The notes under the pieces are model-generated. The model was not told where the DNA came from, made no database searches, and was given only the letters and a program-made list of their open reading frames with translations. The position numbers were made by a program, and so were the translations under genes. Source: Paenibacillus pabuli (GTDB lineage Bacteria > Bacillota > Bacilli > Paenibacillales > Paenibacillaceae). Taken from it: a DNA stretch of 64,000 bases. The stretch is taken from assembly GCF_039831995.1 (NCBI RefSeq), contig NZ_JBDOIO010000003.1:2170001-2234000 (forward strand), in the 5' to 3' direction. This document shows, one piece after another, positions 1,833 through 12,800 of the stretch; within the stretch, counting starts at the first letter, position 1; each line of letters opens with the position of its first letter.

Positions 1833-2468
1833 ATGTCGAAGGAAGAGCGCAATATTACCTGGCAGCAATCCAGTTTAAGCAGGCATGAACGGGAAATACA
1901 TAACGGCCATCGCAGCCGTACGTTGTGGTTTACCGGATTATCGGGTGCAGGTAAATCCTCGCTTGCATTTGCCTTGGAACAGCATCTGCATGATCGAGGC
2001 GTTCGTTGTTATGTACTTGATGGTGACAATGTACGTCATGGGCTCAATCGCGATCTCAGTTTTACAGCGGAGGATCGACAAGAAAATTTACGCCGCATTG
2101 GTGAAGTAGCCAAATTGATGGTGGATGCCGGGCTGCTCGTTCTTTCGGCCTTCATTTCTCCCCATGCACAGGATCGGGAAATGGTCAGACAGTTATTTAA
2201 GCCTGATGATTTTATAGAAATATATGTTCAGTGTTCCATCGAAGAATGTGAGCGGCGCGATCCAAAAGGTTTGTACAAAAAAGCCCGCAGCGGAGATATT
2301 CCCCATTTTACTGGAATCTCAGCACCTTACGATGTGCCGGAGGATCCGTCGCTTATTATTGATACGGAACAGCTCACTTTGCACGAAGCCATTCAAGAGA
2401 TTGTACAGTACCTGGAATTGACAGGAGCACTTCAGCTCCCTCTTGCCCCCACTACCCGTCAAGTTTAA
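1833..2468 (+). CDS. cysC: Adenylylsulfate (APS) kinase
   Basis: Phosphorylates APS to PAPS using ATP, in the cytoplasm. The 211 residues match the usual APS kinase length. Walker A is GLSGAGKSS (35-43). The APS-binding stretch DGDNVRHGLNRDLSF (63-77) and the FISP loop (107-110) are intact, and the DPKGLYKKAR segment typical of the family follows. GAGAGGCGG lies just upstream of the ATG. It stands alone: no ATP sulfurylase, PAPS reductase or cysteine gene is nearby. It converges on a lasso peptide operon that contains a PAPS-dependent sulfotransferase, so it may supply PAPS to that pathway (inference). A general role in sulfate assimilation is the alternative. Confidence 0.93.
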   Translation: MSKEERNITWQQSSLSRHEREIHNGHRSRTLWFTGLSGAGKSSLAFALEQHLHDRGVRCYVLDGDNVRHGLNRDLSFTAEDRQENLRRIGEVAKLMVDAGLLVLSAFISPHAQDREMVRQLFKPDDFIEIYVQCSIEECERRDPKGLYKKARSGDIPHFTGISAPYDVPEDPSLIIDTEQLTLHEAIQEIVQYLELTGALQLPLAPTTRQV

Positions 2469-2572: not shown

Positions 2573-4411
2573 TTACTGCCCTACGACATCGGCCTGCATA
2601 TTCAATAACTTGCTGAAGGTCCCCACCGGATCTGTAGATAATTGTTGGTACCCACCCTGCTGAATCACTCGGCCTTCCTCCAGTACAATTACTCGATCCG
2701 CTGTACGGATCGTGGACAAACGATGGGCAATCACAACAATGGTTACATGTCCTTTGAGTCGTTCAATTGCCTCATGAATGTGCTGCTCGTTCTCACTATC
2801 CAGTGCACTTGTAGCTTCATCCAAAATGAGCACTGACGGATTACGCAGTATCGCTCTGGCCAGTACTAGACGCTGGCGTTCCCCACCGGATAAACGAATC
2901 CCCCGATCACCAATCATCGTATCCAATCCATGAGGAAGTTTGCGGACAAATGCTGCTGAGGAAGAAAACTGCAAGGCTTGCCACATCTGTTCTTCACTCG
3001 CGTCATGATCAACCAACCGCAAATTCTCACGGATGCTTGTATGGAATAGAAACGGATCCTGAGATACATATCCAATCGAACTTCTCCACGCCAATAATTG
3101 CTCCTCGGACAGTGGGACACCGTCGATGAGAATTTGCCCACTCTCTGGACGAATCAGACCCATAATAAGATCAATTAAGGTACTCTTTCCGGCACCTGAT
3201 TTACCCACAATGGCTGTCATTCCTTTGGCAGGAATGGATGCATTAACGTTTGCGAGCGAGTAAGACGAACTGCCCTCGTAACGGTAATTGACATTCGTAC
3301 ACTCGATAGATCGCATCAGTTCAAGAGGCTGAATGATGTGGTGACCATCTCTCCAGCTATTTCGATTTAATTCTGCTGATGCATTTAGTTCACTAATTTC
3401 ACGGCTCATTTCCGTCTCAGCCTGTAGCTTCCTGACCAGCTGAAATGCCGGCAGCATCGAGCTAATATACTCCAGGTTGGACTGAATGGATGTAAACCTG
3501 GGCCATAGCCGGGAGAAAATGAGAATGATCAGCAATAAACTCGCCGGGGGTACGGCAAGAACACGCAGTGACAGGTAGATGAAGGCGGCAATAATAACAG
3601 CGGAGGATACGCGGTGAATAAGCTGTGTTCCACTGTTCAACTGGCTGAATTGAATGACGTTTCGCTCGATTCGTTTGCATATTTTTTCAAACCATCCGAT
3701 ATGCGACTCCTCGAGCATGTTGCTTTTGATATCCTTAATACCATTAAAATGCTCTGTAATACCATTATAATAGTGCTGGGATAGTTCGGATGTCTGATCG
3801 CCGATCTGCTTGGCCCGCTGCACAAACTGCTTGAGAACGAAGAACAACAGAACCCCGAAAACAAGTACAATAACCGTTAACTTCGCGGACAGCCAAAAAG
3901 CCAGCCCAATCTGAATCGCTGTAAAAATCAAGGACGCAGCCATTTGCAGGATCAGATTCGTGCCTTGACTGACTCGTGCAAGTTCGGTCGTTAATATATG
4001 GTTAAAATCGGATTTTCGTTTTTGGAGAAAAAAAGACCATTTGGCCATAATGATGGCCCGATAAGTTTCCTGTCGCAATGTTCGGATAAACTGCTGCTGG
4101 ATCCGGGTGTTTCGAATCGTCTGCAGACGCTGGAGCCATGCCTGTCCGGAGAGGATGACCACAAAAACGCCCAATACCAACACTAATTGACTATTGTCGG
4201 AGAGCTGACCTAACCATTCGGAGAGCCAGGGCAATTGTAGCCCGGTTGAGCTCATTTCAAATATACCGATTAAACTTAACATGGGGACTAGCATATAAAT
4301 GCCGATTCCCTCCATTAAACTAATGCAGATCATGCCTAGCAAGTTCCAATAGAGAACAGGTCCTGTTACATCACGAAGCTTGCGCATATAAAATCGAAGT
4401 TCTGATATCAT
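2573..4411 (-). CDS. Lasso peptide ABC exporter (transmembrane domain fused to ATPase, LarD/PadeD type)
   Basis: A 612-residue half-transporter that would dimerise in the membrane and export the mature lasso peptide, also giving self-immunity. Residues about 15-310 hold six likely membrane segments (for example 20-50, 75-92, 155-195 and 270-300). The ATPase follows with Walker A GKSGAGKST (403-411), signature LSGGE (507-511), Walker B VLILDE (527-532) and the H-loop AHR. There is no C39 peptidase domain, as expected when leader removal is done by B1/B2. It is the last gene of the operon, three bases after the nucleotidyltransferase, with AAAGGGG before the start. The export role is inferred from position and family. 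Confidence 0.9.
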   Translation of the reverse strand: MISELRFYMRKLRDVTGPVLYWNLLGMICISLMEGIGIYMLVPMLSLIGIFEMSSTGLQLPWLSEWLGQLSDNSQLVLVLGVFVVILSGQAWLQRLQTIRNTRIQQQFIRTLRQETYRAIIMAKWSFFLQKRKSDFNHILTTELARVSQGTNLILQMAASLIFTAIQIGLAFWLSAKLTVIVLVFGVLLFFVLKQFVQRAKQIGDQTSELSQHYYNGITEHFNGIKDIKSNMLEESHIGWFEKICKRIERNVIQFSQLNSGTQLIHRVSSAVIIAAFIYLSLRVLAVPPASLLLIILIFSRLWPRFTSIQSNLEYISSMLPAFQLVRKLQAETEMSREISELNASAELNRNSWRDGHHIIQPLELMRSIECTNVNYRYEGSSSYSLANVNASIPAKGMTAIVGKSGAGKSTLIDLIMGLIRPESGQILIDGVPLSEEQLLAWRSSIGYVSQDPFLFHTSIRENLRLVDHDASEEQMWQALQFSSSAAFVRKLPHGLDTMIGDRGIRLSGGERQRLVLARAILRNPSVLILDEATSALDSENEQHIHEAIERLKGHVTIVVIAHRLSTIRTADRVIVLEEGRVIQQGGYQQLSTDPVGTFSKLLNMQADVVGQ

Positions 4412-4414
4412 TGG

Positions 4415-5605
4415 TTAACCCCTTTCCGTCATCGCGTTCCTTTTCATTCGCCGCCAGAACCAGAGGAATGGACGTAACGGAAAATACAGAAAGTGCAAAG
4501 AGCGCGGAAGCGGCAATTGTTCCACATCCCAGGTACTTGGATATAATCGTTCAATGAAGAAAAACATTTTCTGTCTGGTACTTCTCAGCGCAAACAGATA
4601 GGAGCGGTAACTTCGCAAATTCGCTGGTGTGTCCAGCATATCATTCATAAATAACACGCCATGTTTAGCCAGCCGTTCTCCCGCGCGTTCTTGGGAGGAT
4701 AATAAACTGCGATAGCCCGCATCCAGTGGTGTATTCATCAGTACGGATGCAAGGCGCAGCGCTTGGGCACCAATAACGAGCCGTCCTTCAGCTTTCAGGC
4801 GTCTGGTTAACAGGTTTACATCCAAAGGCATACTGCGAATCATCTGATCGATGTCCATGAGCCAGCGCAGTCTGAACCACCCATGACGGGCGCCGTGGGT
4901 CACCAGATATGCCCATAAATCTTCTCTCTCCAGCATGCGGATCGGGGTCTGCGTGTACGTACTGAACCGACTGCGCTGCCACAGCAACTCAAAATCCGTT
5001 TCTTTTCCAGAATCCGGATTAAGCCGCCAGTGAATTTCCACTTGAGTCTTCTTCATAGGATGCTTGTAACAGATATGATGCTCGCGCCATTTCCAGCTCT
5101 GCACGGTTGGGCGCCGTTTTTCTTCCTTAGATACATAACCGAGCGTTTCCAAAATCTGTTCCGCAGACTCCACATCATCAAAAGGAATGAGAATGTCCAA
5201 ATCCTTGGATGTTCTTAAAGACACATCTCCGTAGAGATCGTGGGCTAGTGCTGGCCCTTTTAACGTAATACTCCGAATTCCCTGTTCATTGAAAGCCCCG
5301 CAGACCTGTTCCATCTCCGCCGTCAGGTGCAGCATGCGAAACGTATTCGCCGTATATTCCTGTCTTAAACTCTCTACAACAGACGCAGGAATGAAGGGAG
5401 ATTCTAATGTTTTGAGTTTCATGTATAGAACCGAGTACAATCTGTGATGATAGACAAGACGCAAAAAGAGCTTCCAGTCTATTCCTTTGGTTAAAGCCTT
5501 AACTGCTTCTGGAGCAAGTCCCTGCAGCTCATCTTTCATGATCGTCAAAATCAGCTTGAGCTCTTGCGGAAACCCTCTTGTGTAGTCATCAAATTCAAGA
5601 TTCAT
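4415..5605 (-). CDS. Nucleotidyltransferase-fold protein of the lasso cluster (NTP_transf_5 type)
   Basis: 396 residues. The core motif is LKGPAL (115-120) followed by a D-L-Y-G-D stretch, R-T-S-K and DLDIL (135-139). The K-G...D-x-D arrangement is that of the uncharacterised NTP_transf_5 family, whose two aspartates bind metal-nucleotide. Genes of this family recur in lasso peptide clusters of Bacillales; from memory, the one of the pseudomycoidin cluster modifies the C-terminal serine. Here a separate HPr-kinase-like enzyme is also present, so this protein may add a second group, or work on an already phosphorylated residue (inference). The start is ATG 5605, because GGAG lies nine bases upstream and it overlaps the B2 stop by 11 bases; longer readings lack a ribosome binding site. 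Its product is unknown. Confidence 0.75.
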   Translation of the reverse strand: MNLEFDDYTRGFPQELKLILTIMKDELQGLAPEAVKALTKGIDWKLFLRLVYHHRLYSVLYMKLKTLESPFIPASVVESLRQEYTANTFRMLHLTAEMEQVCGAFNEQGIRSITLKGPALAHDLYGDVSLRTSKDLDILIPFDDVESAEQILETLGYVSKEEKRRPTVQSWKWREHHICYKHPMKKTQVEIHWRLNPDSGKETDFELLWQRSRFSTYTQTPIRMLEREDLWAYLVTHGARHGWFRLRWLMDIDQMIRSMPLDVNLLTRRLKAEGRLVIGAQALRLASVLMNTPLDAGYRSLLSSQERAGERLAKHGVLFMNDMLDTPANLRSYRSYLFALRSTRQKMFFFIERLYPSTWDVEQLPLPRSLHFLYFPLRPFLWFWRRMKRNAMTERG

Positions 5606-6077
5606 AGACAATTTCTCCAGTTCCCTTCTCCGGACAACGCTTGCCAAACACGCCGACAACCGTATATTGGTCCATAGTATCCGCTCCGGTTACGATGATT
5701 TTTCCACTTCGCAGCCAGGCATGAGCCATCATTTGTCCTTGCTTATTGCGCGCAGTTCCCATATACAGCGTACTCTCTATGTTGCGGCGTTCTAGCATTT
5801 TCATTGCAGCGATCGCCATGACTAGACAGCGGCTTTCCCATAATGTGTACTTGCTCGCCAGCAAAATGGCTTTGGAAACATGTCTAATCGCTATAATCTG
5901 ATTTCTATCGATTCCGTTCATAGAGGTTTCATACTGTGCTGTGCCGAGCCCAGGGGCGATTTTGGCAAAAGGTCGCGCTTTGAGGATCCGTGCCCACCCC
6001 AAATGAATATACGCCTCCCATACCATAAGCCTGACTTCACGTGGCAATGAACGATAATTTTTGATTTTGCGTAACAT
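5595..6077 (-). CDS. Lasso peptide leader protease B2 (transglutaminase-like cysteine protease)
   Basis: Cuts the leader from the precursor so the cyclase can use the new N-terminus. The 160-residue protein shows the catalytic set of the family: Cys84 in SRCLVMA, His119 in AHAWL and a likely Asp133 in VTGAD. The C...HAW...D spacing is typical of stand-alone B2 proteins. The start is ATG 6077, with GAGG and AAGG upstream. A TTG at 6098 would add seven residues and overlap B1 more. It sits between B1 and the nucleotidyltransferase, with overlaps that imply translational coupling. Substrate recognition should be delegated to B1. Confidence 0.9.
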   Translation of the reverse strand: MLRKIKNYRSLPREVRLMVWEAYIHLGWARILKARPFAKIAPGLGTAQYETSMNGIDRNQIIAIRHVSKAILLASKYTLWESRCLVMAIAAMKMLERRNIESTLYMGTARNKQGQMMAHAWLRSGKIIVTGADTMDQYTVVGVFGKRCPEKGTGEIVYES

Positions 6078-6081
6078 CGCC

Positions 6082-6381
6082 TTAATCCTCGTGGACAACG
6101 TCGATTAATCCCTCACGGGACATATGTTCAAGAAACGGAATGACTTGTGCGTGACACGTATCTGCATCAATTTCGTACTCGGAAGCCAGCACGCCAACGA
6201 GGTCGGCGATGGTCCGTTCCTGAGACAAAAGTTCCCAAATGCGTCCGCCAGTACTGCCAAGATTATAGTATTTTCCACTTTGGATACTCATCATGACTTT
6301 TTCCCCGCCCATATCACTGACGAGATTCCCTTCCTTCTGCTTCACACGATCTTTCCAATCAAACTGTTTTGTACTTTTCAT
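6082..6381 (-). CDS. Lasso peptide leader-binding protein B1 (PqqD-like RRE)
   Basis: A 99-residue PqqD-fold protein that captures the precursor leader and hands it to B2. The family signature G-x-Y-Y-x-L-x-x-x-G-x-x-I-W-x-L-L is present (KYYNLGSTGGRIWELL, about residues 37-52), followed by the helical part ending DVVHED. It begins within the last bases of the kinase gene (4-base ATGA overlap) and is followed closely by B2, the usual order in Firmicute lasso clusters. The leader motif it would bind, W-x-x-P-x-L-x-x-L, is visible in the precursor at 7460-7591. Confidence 0.92.
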   Translation of the reverse strand: MKSTKQFDWKDRVKQKEGNLVSDMGGEKVMMSIQSGKYYNLGSTGGRIWELLSQERTIADLVGVLASEYEIDADTCHAQVIPFLEHMSREGLIDVVHED

Positions 6382-7322
6382 TGTTCTGTGTGCACTCCTT
6401 TGCGTACATGATCTGTAATTCGTTCAACCATCTCAAATGCAGTAAATTCAGAACCTGACCTGGTCAATCTACAAATTTCTATGCTCGCAGATAATCTTGA
6501 AACTGTTTCGAACAGCCACTGCGCAAGGCCTTGCCTTGCCACAAGAGTACTTCGGAAGGTATGTGTACACAGCAGATGAAGTCTTTCCAAGCCTTGAACC
6601 TGTGTCAATTGAATAGGCTCCCTTACGGCATCCGGTTTGGGATTCAGCTCAAAAATGCCAGCAAGCGGGACAGCTCTCTCATGAAAATAATGCTGAACCG
6701 GTATCGCATACTTCGTTATCTCGGCATGTACGGTGGCATAGTTCTCTTCTTTCATGCCAAACCCATCTAGGCTGGGCTGCCACAGTTTCTGCTGTGGATA
6801 CCCTGGAGATACGATAGCTCTGCCTCCGGCGTCCCATGTTAGTGCAACGACATCATCGGTCAGAAGTGGATACCCACGTGAAGCCAGAGCTGCCGATAAA
6901 GTGGATTTCCCAGCGCCCGAATGACCCACAAATGCATAAGCCCAGCCATCAATAACTACGGCACTTCCGTGTAGTGGCAGGATGCCCCGCTGCATCATGA
7001 TAACGGCCATGCAGGTACCAAGAATAAACAATCGGACTTTTTTTTCATCAGCGTTCTGCTTAGGATTAACAATTATTCTGCGTCCTTGCTCAATCAGGAA
7101 GATGCCTGTATCTTCAATTCGAAAAAAAAGACTGCCGTCACGAGATACGAAATTTTCATTCCCCACATTCCACGCTTCCCAAAGCGCGGTTAAATCGGCA
7201 GACTGGATATGTACGTCAATATCACCAGCATCCTGACTACTGTTCTGCACGATCTGGAGTTCTGGCATTTGAAATTGGCTTAGCCAACGCAATCCATATG
7301 CTTCATACTGCACAGGCAACAA
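6378..7322 (-). CDS. HPr-kinase-like lasso peptide kinase (PadeK type)
   Basis: Predicted to phosphorylate the C-terminal serine of the lasso precursor with ATP, as shown for paeninodin (from memory of that work). The 314-residue protein has Walker A GHSGAGKST (133-141) and the HPrK-type DDVVAL (156-161). It lacks the N-terminal regulatory domain of true HPr kinases and starts with the V-x-Y-x-A-Y-G-L stretch usual for this class. I place the start at TTG 7322 because AAGGAGGA (7331-7338) lies eight bases upstream. ATGs at 7373 and 7409 are in frame but lie inside terminator/antiterminator hairpins and would translate them. Between this gene and the precursor lies a candidate attenuator (7354-7426). 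Confidence 0.85.
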   Translation of the reverse strand: MLPVQYEAYGLRWLSQFQMPELQIVQNSSQDAGDIDVHIQSADLTALWEAWNVGNENFVSRDGSLFFRIEDTGIFLIEQGRRIIVNPKQNADEKKVRLFILGTCMAVIMMQRGILPLHGSAVVIDGWAYAFVGHSGAGKSTLSAALASRGYPLLTDDVVALTWDAGGRAIVSPGYPQQKLWQPSLDGFGMKEENYATVHAEITKYAIPVQHYFHERAVPLAGIFELNPKPDAVREPIQLTQVQGLERLHLLCTHTFRSTLVARQGLAQWLFETVSRLSASIEICRLTRSGSEFTAFEMVERITDHVRKGVHTEQ

Positions 7323-7353
7323 TGAATGACTCCTCCTTAGCAATGCTGAATGT

Positions 7354-7426
7354 AAAAAAGCCCTTATATTCATAGGAATCAAATATAAGGGCGGAGGCGA
7401 AAAGATCATGTTGTCTTTCCGCCCTT
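7354..7426 (-). promoter_or_regulatory. Candidate terminator/antiterminator (attenuator) between precursor and kinase genes
   Basis: On the minus-strand RNA three segments compete. Segment 1 (7426-7418) reads AAGGGCGGA. Segment 2 (7395-7382) reads TCCGCCCTTATATT. Segment 3 (7370-7360) reads AATATAAGGGC and is followed by six U (7359-7354). Segments 2 and 3 form an 11-bp perfect stem with a U tract, a standard terminator. Segments 1 and 2 form a 9-bp perfect stem that would prevent it. The pairing is read directly from sequence. Regulation is inferred; the simplest version is a leaky terminator that keeps precursor mRNA in excess over the enzymes downstream. Confidence 0.75.
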
Positions 7427-7459
7427 TAAGTATGATAGCTCTTCGTAAAACTTAATAAC

Positions 7460-7591
7460 TTAGGAAGTTGGATCGTAGAGATCAGCGTCGTGCTCAGAGA
7501 TCCAGTCAATTTGTCTGAAACCAGTTCCAGCCATAGTTTGGTTTACTTCCAACACTTCCAGTGCAGGTGCTTGCCATTCTTTCTTTTCCAT
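7460..7591 (-). CDS. Lasso peptide precursor (class II, paeninodin-like)
   Basis: A 43-residue open frame with an excellent ribosome binding site (AAAGGAGGTGA, AGGAGG eight bases before the ATG). The leader begins MEKKEWQAPALEVLEV and carries W6-x2-P9-x-L11-x2-L14, a Trp variant of the Y-x-x-P-x-L motif bound by B1, plus the conserved Thr at the penultimate leader position (NQT-M). Cleavage after TM would release a 23-residue core starting AGTGFRQID, so an Ala1-Asp9 macrolactam ring of nine residues is predicted. The tail is acidic and ends DADLYDPTS. Paeninodin (from memory) also has a 23-residue core, begins AG, closes at Asp9 and ends in Ser. Ser23 is the expected phosphorylation site; Tyr19 between Asp residues is a plausible sulfation site. 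Confidence 0.93.
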   Translation of the reverse strand: MEKKEWQAPALEVLEVNQTMAGTGFRQIDWISEHDADLYDPTS

Positions 7592-7646
7592 TGTTGTCAC
7601 CTCCTTTCAAGAGTTTACAATGCTGCCTAGTATGTAAATCTCACGT

Positions 7647-9584
7647 TCAAAATTTGCGGATGAAGCGGTATACGATCAGGCTGTGCATCATCAAACGCAT
7701 ATCCGGGTGAGAGGCGAGCTCAGGCCGTGGATGCGGAATGTTTTTAAGCGCTGATTGTATTCGTTCGGTGTTTAATATGCCGGCTACACGACTATCAGAA
7801 CAAAGCGCCTGCACTTCTGCGGTAAAAGCGTCCCAATCAGGGATCATCCGATGCAGCCAATCCGCGGGCTGTATGCCCCGAACACGTTGATTGAGTCTTA
7901 CCTTATCAGGCAATTCTGGTGAGGTTGCACGCCGGATTAGGGAGCGATCTGTTCCCTTGCTGACATACTGTTCGATGGGTACCGACAGGCAAAATTGAAT
8001 GACGCGGGCGTCACTGGTGGGATCACGCTCCCATGCCCGGTAACGCAAGGAACATTTGGTAGCTACAGCTCCATTCTTGTTCGCAATGGCCAAATTGTTG
8101 AACTTCTCCGCTCTTACTTTCAACGCATCTGCTCTAGCGCCTCCCTGAAGCATAACCGATGATCCGAGTCGCTCAAGTACCCCTGTTCTGCTCGCAAATT
8201 CCGGATGAATGAGTTGGTTGGTCGCGACATTGGCCGCCCCTTTCGAGGCATTATGGAAACGTTCCGGATAGGCTTTTTGTGCGGTAATGCGAGCAATTCT
8301 TGAAAATTTCATTCCCGTTCGCTGAGAATATTGTCTCATCTCCTGCAGCATCAGGAGCCAGCGCCCGCGTTTCATCAGACTGGCGTAGTAGTCCAGTGCA
8401 GGTCCCCATGAAATGGTGAAATTTCCCCGGGCTCCGGTGAGCAGTACCCCTGCATCCTGCTGACTTGCCTTTTCGTAAAACCCCCGGATCCAGAATGAAT
8501 TTTCGAAATACTTATATGGCATTTCCATCATGTCCAGCCAAGTATCTATCTCACTAAAAGGACTCCTGCCTTCGAAATCCAGATAGTTCTCCGATATATT
8601 TCCGATATGATCCACTGTGGAGCGAATGAAAGGTCGTTCATCAGCCAGCAGCGTTTTGGAAGTATAATCCGTAAAATCAGACACAGGCACGTAGCTGTAC
8701 GCATTCAGCCTTTTCCCCTGGCTGCGCAAGGATCCCGAAGCAAAACCGACAACAGCACCCGAATCCAGTCCACCGCTTAATGCGGCGGCTACCTGCCGAT
8801 GGGTTCGCAAGCGGGCACTGACCGCCTGAGAGAATACATCACGAAATGCTTCAACGTATTCCCCATCGGATTTGAGAAGCAGCGGCTCCACTTCGTCCCA
8901 GCGATGATACTGCTTCAGTTCCACTTTGAAAGTGGATGCTCGGAAGACCAGGGTATGTGCAGGGGGTAATTGGTTCACTCCACGATATGCTGTCATGTGG
9001 ATATCTGCTGAGCCATGCATTTCCGGGATGGCCAGAAATTCGGATAACCAGGTCTCATTCAAATCCTTGGTTACCCCTTCGAGATCAAGCAAAGGGCCAA
9101 TTAGTGTGCAAAATGAGAAACGCTTGCCGTCATGCCGGTAATACAACGTTCTCATGCCGGTAATATCCCTCGCTGCAAACAGTATCCGTTTGCGGTCGTC
9201 CCAGATTGCAAAAGCAAAGTCCCCAATCAGCTTGCTCGCTGCCTGTTCACCCCATTGCTGATAGGCTCTCAAAATCAGTTCACTGTCCGATAGGACAGAC
9301 AACTGGCTTCTGGAGATGAATAACTGATCAGCGAGTTGTTCCCGGTTATCCAAAATAGCATCTGCGGTAATCGTAAGACCACTGACCTCATCAACCAGAG
9401 GCAGCTGCTCGTTGACTGATTCGGGTGTGATCCACTGGGCATGACAACTCAGGAATGCCTGGTTCCCTTTCCAAACCCCCGTTGTATCCGCCGGAATATG
9501 TCCTAGGCTTGCGTACAGGCGCCAGCTATCTTCCCAAAACGCTTCCTGACCATCGGCATGAACAATTCCCGCTATGGCACTCAT
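7647..9584 (-). CDS. Lasso cyclase C (asparagine synthetase homologue)
   Basis: Adenylates the side-chain carboxylate of the ring Asp and forms the isopeptide bond to the freed N-terminus. The 645-residue protein keeps the two-domain layout of AsnB: an N-terminal glutamine-amidotransferase-like domain (about 1-200) and the ATP pyrophosphatase domain with SGGLDS (270-275). The residue after Met is Ser, not the Cys2 nucleophile of active glutaminases, as expected for lasso cyclases, which do not use glutamine. The start is ATG 9584: it overlaps the sulfotransferase stop as ATGA, and GGAGG lies upstream. The reading to 9623 adds 13 residues the family lacks. The precursor gene follows 55 bases later. 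Confidence 0.92.
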   Translation of the reverse strand: MSAIAGIVHADGQEAFWEDSWRLYASLGHIPADTTGVWKGNQAFLSCHAQWITPESVNEQLPLVDEVSGLTITADAILDNREQLADQLFISRSQLSVLSDSELILRAYQQWGEQAASKLIGDFAFAIWDDRKRILFAARDITGMRTLYYRHDGKRFSFCTLIGPLLDLEGVTKDLNETWLSEFLAIPEMHGSADIHMTAYRGVNQLPPAHTLVFRASTFKVELKQYHRWDEVEPLLLKSDGEYVEAFRDVFSQAVSARLRTHRQVAAALSGGLDSGAVVGFASGSLRSQGKRLNAYSYVPVSDFTDYTSKTLLADERPFIRSTVDHIGNISENYLDFEGRSPFSEIDTWLDMMEMPYKYFENSFWIRGFYEKASQQDAGVLLTGARGNFTISWGPALDYYASLMKRGRWLLMLQEMRQYSQRTGMKFSRIARITAQKAYPERFHNASKGAANVATNQLIHPEFASRTGVLERLGSSVMLQGGARADALKVRAEKFNNLAIANKNGAVATKCSLRYRAWERDPTSDARVIQFCLSVPIEQYVSKGTDRSLIRRATSPELPDKVRLNQRVRGIQPADWLHRMIPDWDAFTAEVQALCSDSRVAGILNTERIQSALKNIPHPRPELASHPDMRLMMHSLIVYRFIRKF

Positions 9585-10831
9585 GACTTTCCTCCCCGAA
9601 GTATCTTGCGCTGGGATGCCCATGCACTGATTTGGTTTCCGAATGGGATCCAGGATTTAATTCGCTGAAGCTTGCTATGAGCAGTAGCCAGCTGCTTCTT
9701 CAATCGTTCCTGCTCACTGTATCCTCGCTCCAAGCGGTTGTCTGCTGCACGGAGTGCAGCTTCCAGTTGTCTAATTGTGGCAAGCGCAGCTAAGGTGGGA
9801 TCTGTATTGGACTCCGAAGGATGGGCTGCTACACTTGTTGATGGGGCTCCCTGTATGCAGTAATGCGGTTGCCATCTGCAGCCCGTTGCTTCCGCAAACT
9901 GACGGCTAAGTCGTTCAATGACTTCCTGATCCGGGGCTGCTTCATAACGGACTCCTGTCCATTGTTCCGCCTCTTGCAGCTGCTCAGAGTAACCCATACG
10001 ATGGAACACGTCTGCCCCCAGAACACGGCAATATGTTTCGACTTCCGTTGTATCCAGTATTCTTTTCCAGTTGTTAACAGAATTTTTGTGTGCTTCTTGA
10101 TGCGTGGACAAGAACGGGTCTCCGACCCCCATACTGTAGAACATGTTGGATTTCGAACTATCCGCATGAAGGCCATATTGCTCCATGCCTTCCTCATATC
10201 CAACGCCGAGAAACTCACATAACTTTTCGACTTCTTCTTTAGGCTTGGAGACTAGCTGTTCATAACGAAGCTCATGTGCATTTGCATGCTTTACTGCGAA
10301 ATAATCATTTAAGCGAAGCAAGCCGAGCGTAAGATCAACGGCTTTCATATTCAGATGTGGGCTTTCCAGACTGCTGACCAGATTAAACCCTTCTCCTTGG
10401 TTTCGATTAACTTTCTTGTAGGAAGCTGCGATGGAGAGTGGATTACGCTGAAGGTGGATACGCTTGGACTCTGGAAAAAGTCGATCCAGCCATTCGAGCA
10501 TATAGTAATAACGCGGAGATTTATCGACAACGAAATCTGCTGCATTTCCCTGCAGAAATCCGTTATATATTTCAAGAGCAAAGCTCCTGCATGCCTTTTC
10601 ATATACATCATCTGAGACCATGGCACTATAAAATTGACGAATAATGGGGCTTCCTCCATAAGGACGAGCATCCGCTTTTGACAGATCCACCAGGTTCATC
10701 AGAAACCACATTTCCTGTGTTGCAAATATACGGCTGTGGTTCTGCAGCATGACGGTGGATAGTGAGCTTCCACTACGAGGGACACAGAGTAAAAAGACAA
10801 GACCGTTACCTTGAACATCTACCACCGGCAT
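9581..10831 (-). CDS. PAPS-dependent sulfotransferase of the lasso cluster
   Basis: First gene of the lasso operon, 416 residues. The 5'-phosphosulfate loop is PRSGSS (18-23), with VDKSPR near 102-107 and the 3'-phosphate-binding RNPLSIAASY (129-138), so the PAPS site looks complete. It would transfer sulfate from PAPS to a hydroxyl, most likely in the lasso peptide. Tyr19 of the core, flanked by Asp, resembles an acidic tyrosine sulfation site (inference). An unusual C-terminal extension (about 335-400) is heptad-like and charged, a likely coiled coil that could dock on another enzyme. GGAGG lies only about two bases from the ATG; GTG at 10825 (third codon) has better spacing and may be the real start. 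The cyclase start overlaps its stop. Confidence 0.85.
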   Translation of the reverse strand: MPVVDVQGNGLVFLLCVPRSGSSLSTVMLQNHSRIFATQEMWFLMNLVDLSKADARPYGGSPIIRQFYSAMVSDDVYEKACRSFALEIYNGFLQGNAADFVVDKSPRYYYMLEWLDRLFPESKRIHLQRNPLSIAASYKKVNRNQGEGFNLVSSLESPHLNMKAVDLTLGLLRLNDYFAVKHANAHELRYEQLVSKPKEEVEKLCEFLGVGYEEGMEQYGLHADSSKSNMFYSMGVGDPFLSTHQEAHKNSVNNWKRILDTTEVETYCRVLGADVFHRMGYSEQLQEAEQWTGVRYEAAPDQEVIERLSRQFAEATGCRWQPHYCIQGAPSTSVAAHPSESNTDPTLAALATIRQLEAALRAADNRLERGYSEQERLKKQLATAHSKLQRIKSWIPFGNQISAWASQRKILRGGKS

Positions 10832-11201: not shown

Positions 11202-12539
11202 TTATCCACTATGGCTTGTACCCACTCCAGAAGAAGGTACAATCGAGTCCGAAATACGGCTGGCTTCCCGATCGGCCTCAAGCGCATCGTTCATGCCTTG
11301 CCCCACTTTTACTGTCATTAGAACGGCCATACCTGCGAGGAAGAAAAAGAGCAGGGAAAGGATGCCCCATCGGCTTGAGCCCGTAATCTGACCCACCCAG
11401 CCAAAAACAAAAGGACCGAAAATGGATGAAAATTTGCCTGTGATGTTCACAAAGCCAAAATACTCCCCTGTTCTGCCCGAAGGCATCAGGTTGCTGAACA
11501 ATGAACGCGCAGTCGATTGACTGACACCTTGCACTACGCCAACCAATCCAGCAAGCATGTAAAAATGGATGGCTTCCGTCATAAAATATCCGAGTACGAC
11601 AATACATACGTAGATGGACAGACTTAACATCAATACCTGCTTCGCCCCCCAGCGCTGCGCCCATGCCCCCAGCAGCAAGGTGCAAGGGAAACCGATAAAT
11701 TGGGTGAGCAGCAGCGCAAGCATCAGATCGGCTGTCCCGATGCCAATACTTGTACCATAGATCGTCGCCATGAGGATGATCGTATTAATCCCGTCATTGA
11801 AAAACCAAAAAGCCACCAGCATTCGAATCAACTGGGGAAAGCGCAGCATTTGGCGAAAAGTTTGGCGCAGTCTCCGTATCCCTACCTCTGCGTATCCCTT
11901 CCACGATCCAGGCATGTCCGGTGCCGCAGGACGACGGGGAGCATGACGGAACAGCGGGATGGAGAATAACAGCCACCAAAGCGCTACAGAAATAAAGGCG
12001 AGTCTGGTACCTGCCAGCGTACTTCCCATGCCGAACCATTCAGGCTGCTGAATCATGAGCATGTTGACCGCCAGCAGTAATCCACCGCCAATGTAACCAT
12101 ACGCATACCCTTTGGATGAAATCATCTCCCTGCGGTCCGCAGACACCAGATCAGGCAGCATTGCATCATAGAAGGTATTCCCGCCTGCAAATCCTATGGT
12201 CGAGATCACAAGCAAGGCGGAGGCCAGCAGCCAGTCCCCTTCCCCAACCGTGCTGAAGCCAAGTGTTGCAATCATTCCCGTGATAGCAAATACGCGTAGA
12301 AAATCCCCTTTACGGCCAGACAGATCCGACAACGCTCCCAGCAGCGGGGTTAACAAGGCCACACATAACATCCCGACCGAGTGTGTATAGGCCAGGTAAG
12401 ATGCCGCTGTGTCGGCATCCAGCGTTGCCGCAGCTACCGAAGCATAGAAGACGGGAAGTACGGCGGCCAGTACCGTGGTCGCGTATGCAGAATTGGCCCA
12501 GTCGTACATAATCCAAGCTTTAACGGCCCGTTTATCCAA
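11202..12539 (-). CDS. MFS transporter, UMF1/Atg22-like family
   Basis: A polytopic membrane protein of about 445 residues with twelve likely membrane helices. The opening DKRAVKAWIMYDWANSAYAT is the hallmark of the UMF1 (Atg22-like) family, and GALSDLSGRKG (after the second helix) is the MFS loop 2-3 motif. Substrates of bacterial members are not generally known; amino acid or drug efflux have been proposed for relatives. I place the start at TTG 12539 because AAGGAAGGA lies six bases upstream and the product then begins at the conserved DKRAVKAW. ATG 12563 has a poor site. It is separated from the lasso operon by its own terminator and about 370 bases, so I do not count it as part of that cluster. 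Confidence 0.82.
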   Translation of the reverse strand: MDKRAVKAWIMYDWANSAYATTVLAAVLPVFYASVAAATLDADTAASYLAYTHSVGMLCVALLTPLLGALSDLSGRKGDFLRVFAITGMIATLGFSTVGEGDWLLASALLVISTIGFAGGNTFYDAMLPDLVSADRREMISSKGYAYGYIGGGLLLAVNMLMIQQPEWFGMGSTLAGTRLAFISVALWWLLFSIPLFRHAPRRPAAPDMPGSWKGYAEVGIRRLRQTFRQMLRFPQLIRMLVAFWFFNDGINTIILMATIYGTSIGIGTADLMLALLLTQFIGFPCTLLLGAWAQRWGAKQVLMLSLSIYVCIVVLGYFMTEAIHFYMLAGLVGVVQGVSQSTARSLFSNLMPSGRTGEYFGFVNITGKFSSIFGPFVFGWVGQITGSSRWGILSLLFFFLAGMAVLMTVKVGQGMNDALEADREASRISDSIVPSSGVGTSHSG

Positions 12540-12800
12540 GTAAGATCCTTCCTTTTCCTGCATTCCCGACAGAATGCCAATTCATTGCCTGTACTTATTG
12601 TAAGGGAAGTTTGTCATACTTGTTCATCGTTTCTGTAAAAAAGTTCGGGTTGCAACAGGCATTTCGAGCTGTATCCGAAAACTCGGTTACGTAAATTGTA
12701 TCATTTTATCTCCTCTCGCATCACATATCGTCCCCGCCCGTGAATATACTTAATTACCGACAGGCCAAACTGTGCCGCGTAATCAATGGGGGGTGCCTAC

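What the first reader, a model, noticed from the sequence alone, without database searches (positions are those of the whole stretch)
2573..10831. Lasso peptide operon with three candidate tailoring enzymes
One operon holds a complete lasso machinery (A, B1, B2, C, D) together with a PAPS sulfotransferase, an HPr-kinase-like kinase and an NTP_transf_5 nucleotidyltransferase. Phosphorylation by such a kinase is known for paeninodin. Sulfation of a lasso peptide by a cluster sulfotransferase, and a combined sulfo/phospho/third modification on a short acidic tail, would be unusual or new as far as I know.
Basis: partly seen in the sequence, partly recalled or inferred. Interest (0 to 1): 0.88.

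Follow-up and report, generated by a model that had tools for sequence, protein, structure and literature searches.

The report
Lasso peptide operon with dedicated sulfotransferase
A Paenibacillus operon makes a knotted peptide and carries kinase, probable sugar-adding and sulfate-adding enzymes; the layout was noticed in print before, but what the sulfate enzyme does is untested, and comparing relatives suggests it belongs to this pathway.

Summary
The operon is real and intact: eight tightly packed minus-strand genes, ST-C-A-K-B1-B2-N-D, at the given coordinates, with a paeninodin-family precursor (predicted core AGTGFRQIDWISEHDADLYDPTS). It is not unique. A 2021 review (PMC8498205, passages), citing Zhu 2016, already describes Firmicutes lasso clusters with a sulfotransferase gene at the start and a nucleotidyltransferase gene between B2 and D. 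K and N have precedents (paeninodin; pseudomycoidin, where N adds hexose to phosphoserine). The sulfotransferase's role is the open part.

New here: all 90 fetched ST places lie in lasso clusters. PAPS-binding and catalytic residues are kept. ST distances follow C and N. All 103 ST genomes encode an APS kinase (161 of 291 others do); it sits beside the cluster in 69 of 91 ST loci and 1 of 50 ST-less loci. Presence is nested K > N > ST.

Tyr19 is not required: three ST clusters encode Tyr-free cores, and most ST-less relatives keep Tyr19. Ser/Thr12 stays a serious rival. My best guess is sulfation of the sugar that N puts on the C-terminal phosphoserine; this is inference. Against it: in this genome the APS-forming genes that I saw do not read as single intact frames.

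The parts
9581..10831 (-). ST: PAPS-dependent sulfotransferase (PF13469) with a conserved C-terminal extension; first gene of the operon
   Evidence: PRSGSS loop 18-23, E40, K104, R129, S137 present; closest solved structures by sequence are CurM sulfotransferase and TPST
7647..9623 (-). C: lasso cyclase (asparagine-synthetase-like); start overlaps the end of ST by 43 bp
7460..7600 (-). A: precursor, 46 aa; leader 7532-7600, core 7463-7531 (AGTGFRQIDWISEHDADLYDPTS, predicted ring Ala1-Asp9)
   Evidence: (NF033524); cleavage after Thr-Met inferred from the family pattern
7360..7392 (-). terminator-like hairpin plus T run between A and K (possible attenuator)
   Evidence: a hairpin with T-rich tail after A in 32 of 141 loci against 1 of 141 letter-shuffled stretches
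6378..7409 (-). K: HPr-kinase-like kinase (PadeK/PsmK type); true start may be the Met codon at 7373
   Evidence: H147, K168, D185, D186 in 91 of 91 ST+ and 49 of 49 ST- loci with K
6082..6381 (-). B1: leader-binding PqqD-like protein (RRE)
   Evidence: NF033536
5595..6098 (-). B2: leader peptidase (transglutaminase-like)
   Evidence: NF033537
4415..5623 (-). N: NTP_transf_5 protein (PsmN type, predicted to add hexose to phosphoserine)
   Evidence: K122, G123, D141, D143 conserved in 85 of 85 ST+ rows with letters there (3 further rows gapped)
2573..4411 (-). D: ABC exporter
1833..2468 (+). APS kinase (PAPS synthesis), convergent neighbour; only PF01583 match in this genome; probable functional partner, not part of the operon

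Best explanation
The operon makes a paeninodin-class lasso peptide that is phosphorylated, glycosylated and sulfated before export. Shown by sequence: a complete lasso machinery, an intact kinase K, an intact NTP_transf_5 protein N, and an intact PAPS-type sulfotransferase ST, which in every place examined stands in such a cluster, often with an APS kinase beside it. Inferred, by analogy with paeninodin and pseudomycoidin: B1 brings the precursor to B2; K phosphorylates the C-terminal Ser23 of the linear precursor; N adds a hexose to that phosphate; B2 and C cut and close the Ala1-Asp9 ring; D exports the product. Inferred, my commitment: ST takes PAPS made by the neighbouring APS kinase and sulfates a hydroxyl of the sugar added by N, as the rhizobial enzyme NoeE sulfates a fucose after fucosylation. 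The product would carry a strongly anionic sulfo-hexosyl-phospho end on its tail. That ST belongs to this pathway I hold at about 0.9; that the acceptor is the sugar at about 0.42.
For: Pathway membership: 90 of 90 fetched ST places (L002-L091) and the window lie in lasso clusters with C, A, K and B2; 78 of 78 ST loci from a pattern-based scan of 84,980 species genomes (at most 80 kept; they partly repeat the same genomes) also have C, A, K and B2. ST distances correlate with C (r 0.945) and N (r 0.975) over 67 loci. In one genome (G138) ST and C share one open frame of 1109 aa. Catalytic residues kept in 90 of 91 ST rows, the fragment L050 being the exception. PAPS supply: APS kinase in 103 of 103 ST genomes and 161 of 291 others (lists compared by eye); within the locus in 69 of 91 ST+ and 1 of 50 ST- loci; sole copy here; its distances follow ST (r 0.912). 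The CysH here has a CC...CxxC...ECGLH cysteine pattern, which by recalled family knowledge marks an APS reductase that needs no PAPS. ST is the only PF13469 and only PF00685 match in the genome (other sulfotransferase families not searched). Sugar as acceptor: nested presence, K in 140 of 141 loci; N without ST in 21 loci (6 on the strand of A, 15 on the other); ST without N in the locus in 3, of which L057 and L070 have N elsewhere in the genome and L062 is cut by its contig end. Closest named family is NoeE (142 bits over residues 11-319). Three ST+ clusters have Tyr-free cores with ST residues intact, while the terminal Ser is in 76 of 76 unique ST+ cores.
Against: ST scores below the NoeE family cut-off (142 against 500). 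By sequence the nearest solved structures are CurM (a polyketide-synthase sulfotransferase) and tyrosine sulfotransferases, not sugar enzymes. Ser/Thr12 is present in 75 of 76 unique ST+ cores, and one ST-less cluster (L237) has Lys12, so position 12 remains a serious candidate. The nested pattern may reflect shared ancestry of one cluster type rather than reaction order. APS kinase adjacency in genus g1 is largely one inherited arrangement; 22 of 91 ST+ loci lack it (some loci are cut short by contig ends); APS kinase is also common without ST. APS supply here is uncertain: the PF01747 sulfurylase match is partial (positions 149-211 of 212) and the gene reads as two short frames, and the second PF01507 place, which I read as CysD (recalled), lies in two overlapping frames; sequence errors or real decay cannot be told apart. 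PsmN's glycosyl transfer is known to me only from reviews, one of which leaves open that a host enzyme adds the sugar. No product has been seen.
Confidence: 0.48

Rival explanations
1. ST is a peptide sulfotransferase that sulfates the conserved tail tyrosine (Tyr19, Thr19 in some) in its acidic DxD[ILM]Y context, like eukaryotic TPST or bacterial RaxST (RaxST recalled).
For: Position 19 is Tyr in 58 and Thr in 12 of 76 unique ST+ cores, usually preceded by D15 and D17. TPST1/2 are among the nearest solved structures. One of three ST decays in the genus (L092) goes with Tyr19 to Phe.
Against: Tyr-free cores with ST residues intact: L042, L065 and L091 (L091's ST is distant, 37% identical); L219 also reads as Tyr-free by eye, but its ST-C stretch holds an assembly gap. 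Position 19 is G, A, V, D or absent in 6 of 76. ST-less clusters keep Tyr19: L094, L050 (fragment), and four g17 genomes L137 and L238-L240, so its conservation does not depend on ST.
Confidence: 0.17
2. ST sulfates the loop residue Ser/Thr12, just after the ring.
For: Ser or Thr at position 12 in 75 of 76 unique ST+ cores. Paeninodin-type cores without ST mostly have Gln there (43 of 67 ST- cores). The ST-less cluster L237, of a similar core type, has Lys12.
Against: Other ST-less clusters of the same core type keep Ser/Thr12: L050, L092, L094, L137, L238-L240. The distant member L091 has ST with Ile12 (but Thr10 and Thr11). Three orphan precursors in ST-bearing genomes carry Glu12 (L226, L227, L231), others Ser/Thr.
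Confidence: 0.18
3. ST does not modify the lasso peptide at all but another metabolite, and is only linked to the operon.
For: Three species of the same genus have lost or broken ST while C, A, K, B1, B2, N and D remain (L050, L092, L094), so ST is not needed for the rest of the pathway.
Against: In all 90 fetched places ST stands in a lasso cluster; here it is the first gene and overlaps C; it co-diverges with C and N, and shares one frame with C in G138.
Confidence: 0.08
4. Ordinary paeninodin/pseudomycoidin-type cluster in which ST is silent, inactive or starved of PAPS in this strain, giving only phospho and glyco forms.
For: No sulfated lasso peptide was found in the literature searches. 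The APS-forming genes seen in this genome do not read as single intact frames.
Against: Catalytic residues are kept in 90 of 91 ST rows, which argues for selection on activity.
Confidence: 0.1

Closest known systems
Firmicutes lasso clusters with leading sulfotransferase and nucleotidyltransferase genes (Zhu 2016, as told in PMC8498205)
   Same: ST gene at the start and N gene between B2 and D, as described there
   Different: The passage does not say whether those clusters also have K, and describes no product of an ST-bearing cluster; the original paper is not held
Pseudomycoidin (psm cluster, Bacillus pseudomycoides)
   Same: K and N tailoring genes, C-terminal Ser
   Different: No sulfotransferase mentioned for it in the review passages read; paper itself not held
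Paeninodin (pade cluster)
   Same: Precursor family NF033524; tailoring kinase K; C-terminal Ser; split B1/B2
   Different: Core type differs (paeninodin's own core recalled as AGPG-type; here AGTG...IDWIS..DADLY); no N or ST mentioned for it in the passages read
NoeE, rhizobial Nod-factor fucose sulfotransferase
   Same: Best named-family match of ST; NoeE acts after the sugar is added (PMC5080398, one passage)
   Different: ST scores far below the family cut-off; different substrate and host
CurM sulfotransferase and TPST1/2 (solved structures)
   Same: Sulfotransferase domain by sequence, PRSG loop, aligned Glu
   Different: Act on other acceptors (recalled: acyl-carrier-bound hydroxyls, protein tyrosines); ST has an extra C-terminal region

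Membership tests
Paeninodin-family lasso peptide cluster | Precursor matches NF033524 over its cut-off | tested here: met
   62 bits, cut-off 27
Paeninodin-family lasso peptide cluster | WxxP leader motif, Thr at position -2, Asp/Glu at core position 9 | tested here: met
   WQAP, TM before the core, D9 in the sequence; ring closure itself not testable here
Paeninodin-family lasso peptide cluster | Split B1/B2, cyclase C, exporter D | tested here: met
   NF033536 and NF033537 over cut-off; C and D by Pfam. C scores 368 on NF033535, a lasso cyclase model with cut-off 525, so below that model's cut-off
Phosphorylated lasso peptides (K type) | HPr-kinase-like K with H-K-D-D residues and C-terminal Ser in the core | tested here: met
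   core ends in Ser; the motif's role is from PMC9266682 (passage)
Pseudomycoidin-type phosphoglycosylated lasso peptides | N gene (PF14907) with intact DxD | tested here: met
   203 bits; D141, D143; that DxD is the catalytic motif is recalled
Pseudomycoidin-type phosphoglycosylated lasso peptides | Hexose on the phosphorylated Ser in the product | not testable with these tools
   needs mass spectrometry
PAPS-dependent sulfotransferase (PF13469) | Family match over cut-off; 5'-phosphosulfate loop, 3'-phosphate site, catalytic Glu | tested here: met
   100.7 bits; residues conserved; their roles inferred from the alignment with TPST/CurM and recalled knowledge
NoeE (NF052394) | Score over the family cut-off | tested here: not met
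   142.4 bits, cut-off 500
Tyrosine sulfotransferase acting on the core | A tyrosine in every associated core | tested here: not met
   no Tyr in any core of 3 ST+ clusters

The most novel reading that the evidence does not exclude
A widespread pathway of Paenibacillus and relatives that makes sulfated lasso peptides, in which a sugar attached through phosphate to the C-terminal serine carries the sulfate: three stacked modifications on one residue, fed by an APS kinase kept beside the cluster.
Probability: 0.38. Interest if true: 0.65.

Novelty: new member of a known kind. Interest (0 to 1): 0.45.

Why it matters
The sulfotransferase gene was noted, according to a review, in 2016, and the searches here show no tested role. 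The comparison makes it directly testable: it names and ranks the acceptor candidates, names an APS kinase to co-express (heterologous hosts may be short of PAPS), and supplies natural controls: related clusters with decayed ST, clusters with Tyr-free cores, and a possible ST-C fusion. If confirmed, it would add sulfation to the known lasso peptide modifications and perhaps a sulfo-glyco-phospho tail, which could bear on the role of these peptides, still unknown (PMC13381572, passage).

Tried and rejected
Core residues as a pointer to the sulfation site: Ser/Thr12 and Tyr19 looked promising in ST+ clusters, but most ST-less clusters of the same core type keep both, so they mainly follow the core type. 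On rechecking I saw that the ST-less cluster L237 has Lys12 and Thr19; for that I raised the Ser/Thr12 rival from 0.15 to 0.18 and lowered the sugar from 0.45 to 0.42 (best explanation 0.50 to 0.48, novel case 0.40 to 0.38). A clean argument that this genome makes PAPS: weakened by the broken look of the sulfurylase and CysD-like frames. A replacement sulfotransferase in the ST-less g17 clusters: none recognised by eye among the larger frames around C in L238; L137's frames were listed without translation only, and tblastn of the ST set found no remnant in L137. ST-C fusion in L219: artefact of an assembly gap. Structure prediction of ST and fold comparison: the service took no jobs. Promoter-like sites were hardly above chance (21 against 15.1, sd 4.2).
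Full report
What is there. On the minus strand at 2573-10831 lie eight genes, in transcription order ST, C, A, K, B1, B2, N, D, overlapping or less than 60 bp apart with the listed starts. Pfam and NCBIfam name them as a PF13469 sulfotransferase, an asparagine-synthetase-like cyclase, a paeninodin-family precursor (NF033524, 62 bits, cut-off 27), an HPr-kinase-like kinase, B1, B2, an NTP_transf_5 protein and an ABC exporter. The 46-residue precursor ends in the predicted core AGTGFRQIDWISEHDADLYDPTS. Facing the operon's end is an APS kinase gene (1833-2468, +). The genome is about 6.95 Mb and holds one PF13469, one PF00685, one PadeA and one PF01583 match: this ST (both sulfotransferase families), this A and this APS kinase. 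The closest named records by ST are Paenibacillus.

What was known. PMC8498205 (passages) says that some Firmicutes lasso clusters have a putative sulfotransferase gene at the start and a nucleotidyltransferase gene between B2 and D (citing Zhu 2016), and that pseudomycoidin's K phosphorylates the C-terminal Ser and its N adds one or two hexoses. PMC9266682 (passages) adds the H-K-D-D kinase residues and the caution that a host enzyme might add the sugar; it has no word beginning with 'sulf'. PMC13381572 (passages) treats HprK kinases and NTP transferases as typical of paeninodin-like clusters and says the biological role is unknown. The 2026 review PMC13352647 (passages) has no word beginning with 'sulfo'. 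The two primary papers are not held. Four searches of the open library, on lasso peptide with sulfotransferase, with sulfation, with sulfated, and with sulfotransferases plus tailoring, listed no paper whose title or shown abstract start reports a sulfated lasso peptide; most subscription papers are missing from it.

Distribution. Among 394 genomes of the family (own included), PadeA matches occur in 239 and ST at E<=1e-10 in 104. One of the 104 (G284, E 1e-11, inside a 3512-aa frame) I set aside; among the 103 left, G097 has a fragment and G154 a copy in two frames. Of 111 ST matches listed I took 90 places by choice, thinning the window's own genus, plus 50 PadeA places chosen mainly from genomes or loci without ST. 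All 90 ST loci and the window hold C, A, K and B2 (91 of 91), N 88, B1 88, D 89, APS kinase 69; the 50 others: C 49, K 49, N 21, B1 34, B2 33, D 38, APS kinase 1, ST 0. Some loci are short because the contig ends. A pattern-based scan of species genomes gave 78 ST loci (capped at 80), all with C, A, K and B2, 76 with N, 54 with APS kinase; many are the same genomes again. A protein search listed 120 of 147 relatives of ST; the names given are Paenibacillus, Cohnella and a few neighbours, without gene context.

ST looks active and pathway-bound. The PRSG loop is in 91 of 91 rows, and E40, K104, R129 and S137 are in 90 of 91, the fragment L050 being the exception. Profile search of solved structures puts CurM first (99 bits), then a second polyketide-synthase sulfotransferase (92), then tyrosine sulfotransferases (44-46). 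Over 67 loci with ST, C, N and APS kinase (L050, L090, L091 left out), ST distances correlate with those of C (0.945), N (0.975), D (0.897) and APS kinase (0.912), none reached in 999 permutations; shared species history contributes to this. In G138 ST and C lie in one 1109-aa open frame, which could also be a one-base error, since the genes overlap in the window. Three species of the genus have decayed ST beside seven remaining genes (L050, L092, L094), so ST is dispensable for the rest.

PAPS supply. Comparing the lists by eye, all 103 ST genomes have an APS kinase, against 161 of the other 291; within genus g2 it is 15 of 15 against 12 of 22. Position differs between genera (opposite strand downstream, same strand downstream, or just upstream of ST in L091), so adjacency is not one frozen arrangement. 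In 22 of 91 ST loci no APS kinase is in the locus, among them the P. terrae/P. brasilensis group. The CysH of this genome has the cysteine pattern that I recall as typical of APS reductases; CysH enzymes that use both substrates exist (recalled), so this is suggestive only. Against a smooth PAPS supply: the sulfurylase match next to CysH is partial and reads as two short frames (190 and 77 aa), and the other PF01507 place, which looks like CysD (recalled), lies in two overlapping frames of 209 and 145 aa. I cannot tell sequence error from decay.

Order of tailoring. In 141 loci K is nearly universal (140), N is present in 21 ST-less loci (6 on the strand of A, 15 on the other), and ST without N in the locus occurs in 3: L062, cut by a contig end, and L057 and L070, whose genomes carry N about 3 kb and 19 kb from ST. 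K > N > ST fits a sequence in which ST needs N's product. It could also be history.

Acceptor. Of 76 unique cores in ST+ loci (11 second precursors of the GGPN type set aside; one row, L219, not parsed), the last residue is Ser in 76, position 12 is Ser/Thr in 75, and position 19 is Tyr in 58, Thr in 12 and something else or absent in 6. Four cores have no Tyr; three of them are the only precursor of their locus (L042, L065, L091; the fourth, in L055, has a sibling with Tyr), and their ST residues are intact; L091's ST is a distant relative (37% identity). ST-less clusters of the same core type: L050, L092, L094, L137 and L238-L240 keep Ser/Thr12 and, except L092 (Phe), Tyr19; L237 has Lys12 and Thr19. 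So residue conservation does not reveal the site, tyrosine is not a general acceptor, and position 12 stays open. With the nested presence, the NoeE similarity (142 bits, below cut-off; NoeE sulfates a fucose after its addition, PMC5080398 passage) and the universal terminal Ser, the sugar on that Ser is my best guess, at about 0.42.

Verdict. A real, intact member of a cluster type already noticed in print; the sulfotransferase step is the open and testable part.

Noticed in passing
L050, L092, L094; L137, L238-L240; L237: ST is decayed (three species of the window's genus) or absent (four genomes of genus g17, one of g16) while the other seven operon genes remain; the four g17 loci still have the APS kinase beside the cluster.
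   Followed up: partly
L224-L233, L241, L242 (genus g1); L234-L236 (g15): Orphan precursor genes of the same core type, in genomes that also have an ST match elsewhere, with no C, K, B1, B2 or N in the locus (L234 is cut by its contig end); possibly matured in trans. Three have Glu12, and one (L231) ends in Phe instead of Ser.
   Followed up: partly
window 7360-7392 (-): Terminator-like hairpin between A and K that appears to contain the likely K start codon; hairpins with T-rich tails follow A in 26 of 91 ST+ and 6 of 50 ST- loci, against 1 of 141 letter-shuffled stretches.
   Followed up: partly
L063, L064, L066-L069, L071-L075 and L077: Clusters with a second lasso unit (another C, A and K in most) whose precursor has a GGPNG....DKNGKG-type core.
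   Followed up: no
L058, L060, L137, L238-L240: Three or four precursor genes in tandem in one operon.
   Followed up: no
G138:C1:1245205-1248390: ST and C lie in a single 1109-aa open frame: natural fusion or one-base error.
   Followed up: partly
window 9581-10060 (-): ST carries about 150 residues beyond the part that aligns with CurM (which ends at residue 258), with conserved positions (W320, Y324, R366, K387, P396, F397); function unknown.
   Followed up: no
window 11202-12563 (-): Atg22-like MFS transporter directly upstream of the operon, found in 32 of 141 loci, all of the window's genus in the table; probably just synteny.
   Followed up: no
L143 and L145 (own genome, outside the window): A CysD-like gene in two overlapping frames and an ATP-sulfurylase-like gene in two short frames: sequence errors or decay of the APS-forming step.
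   Followed up: partly
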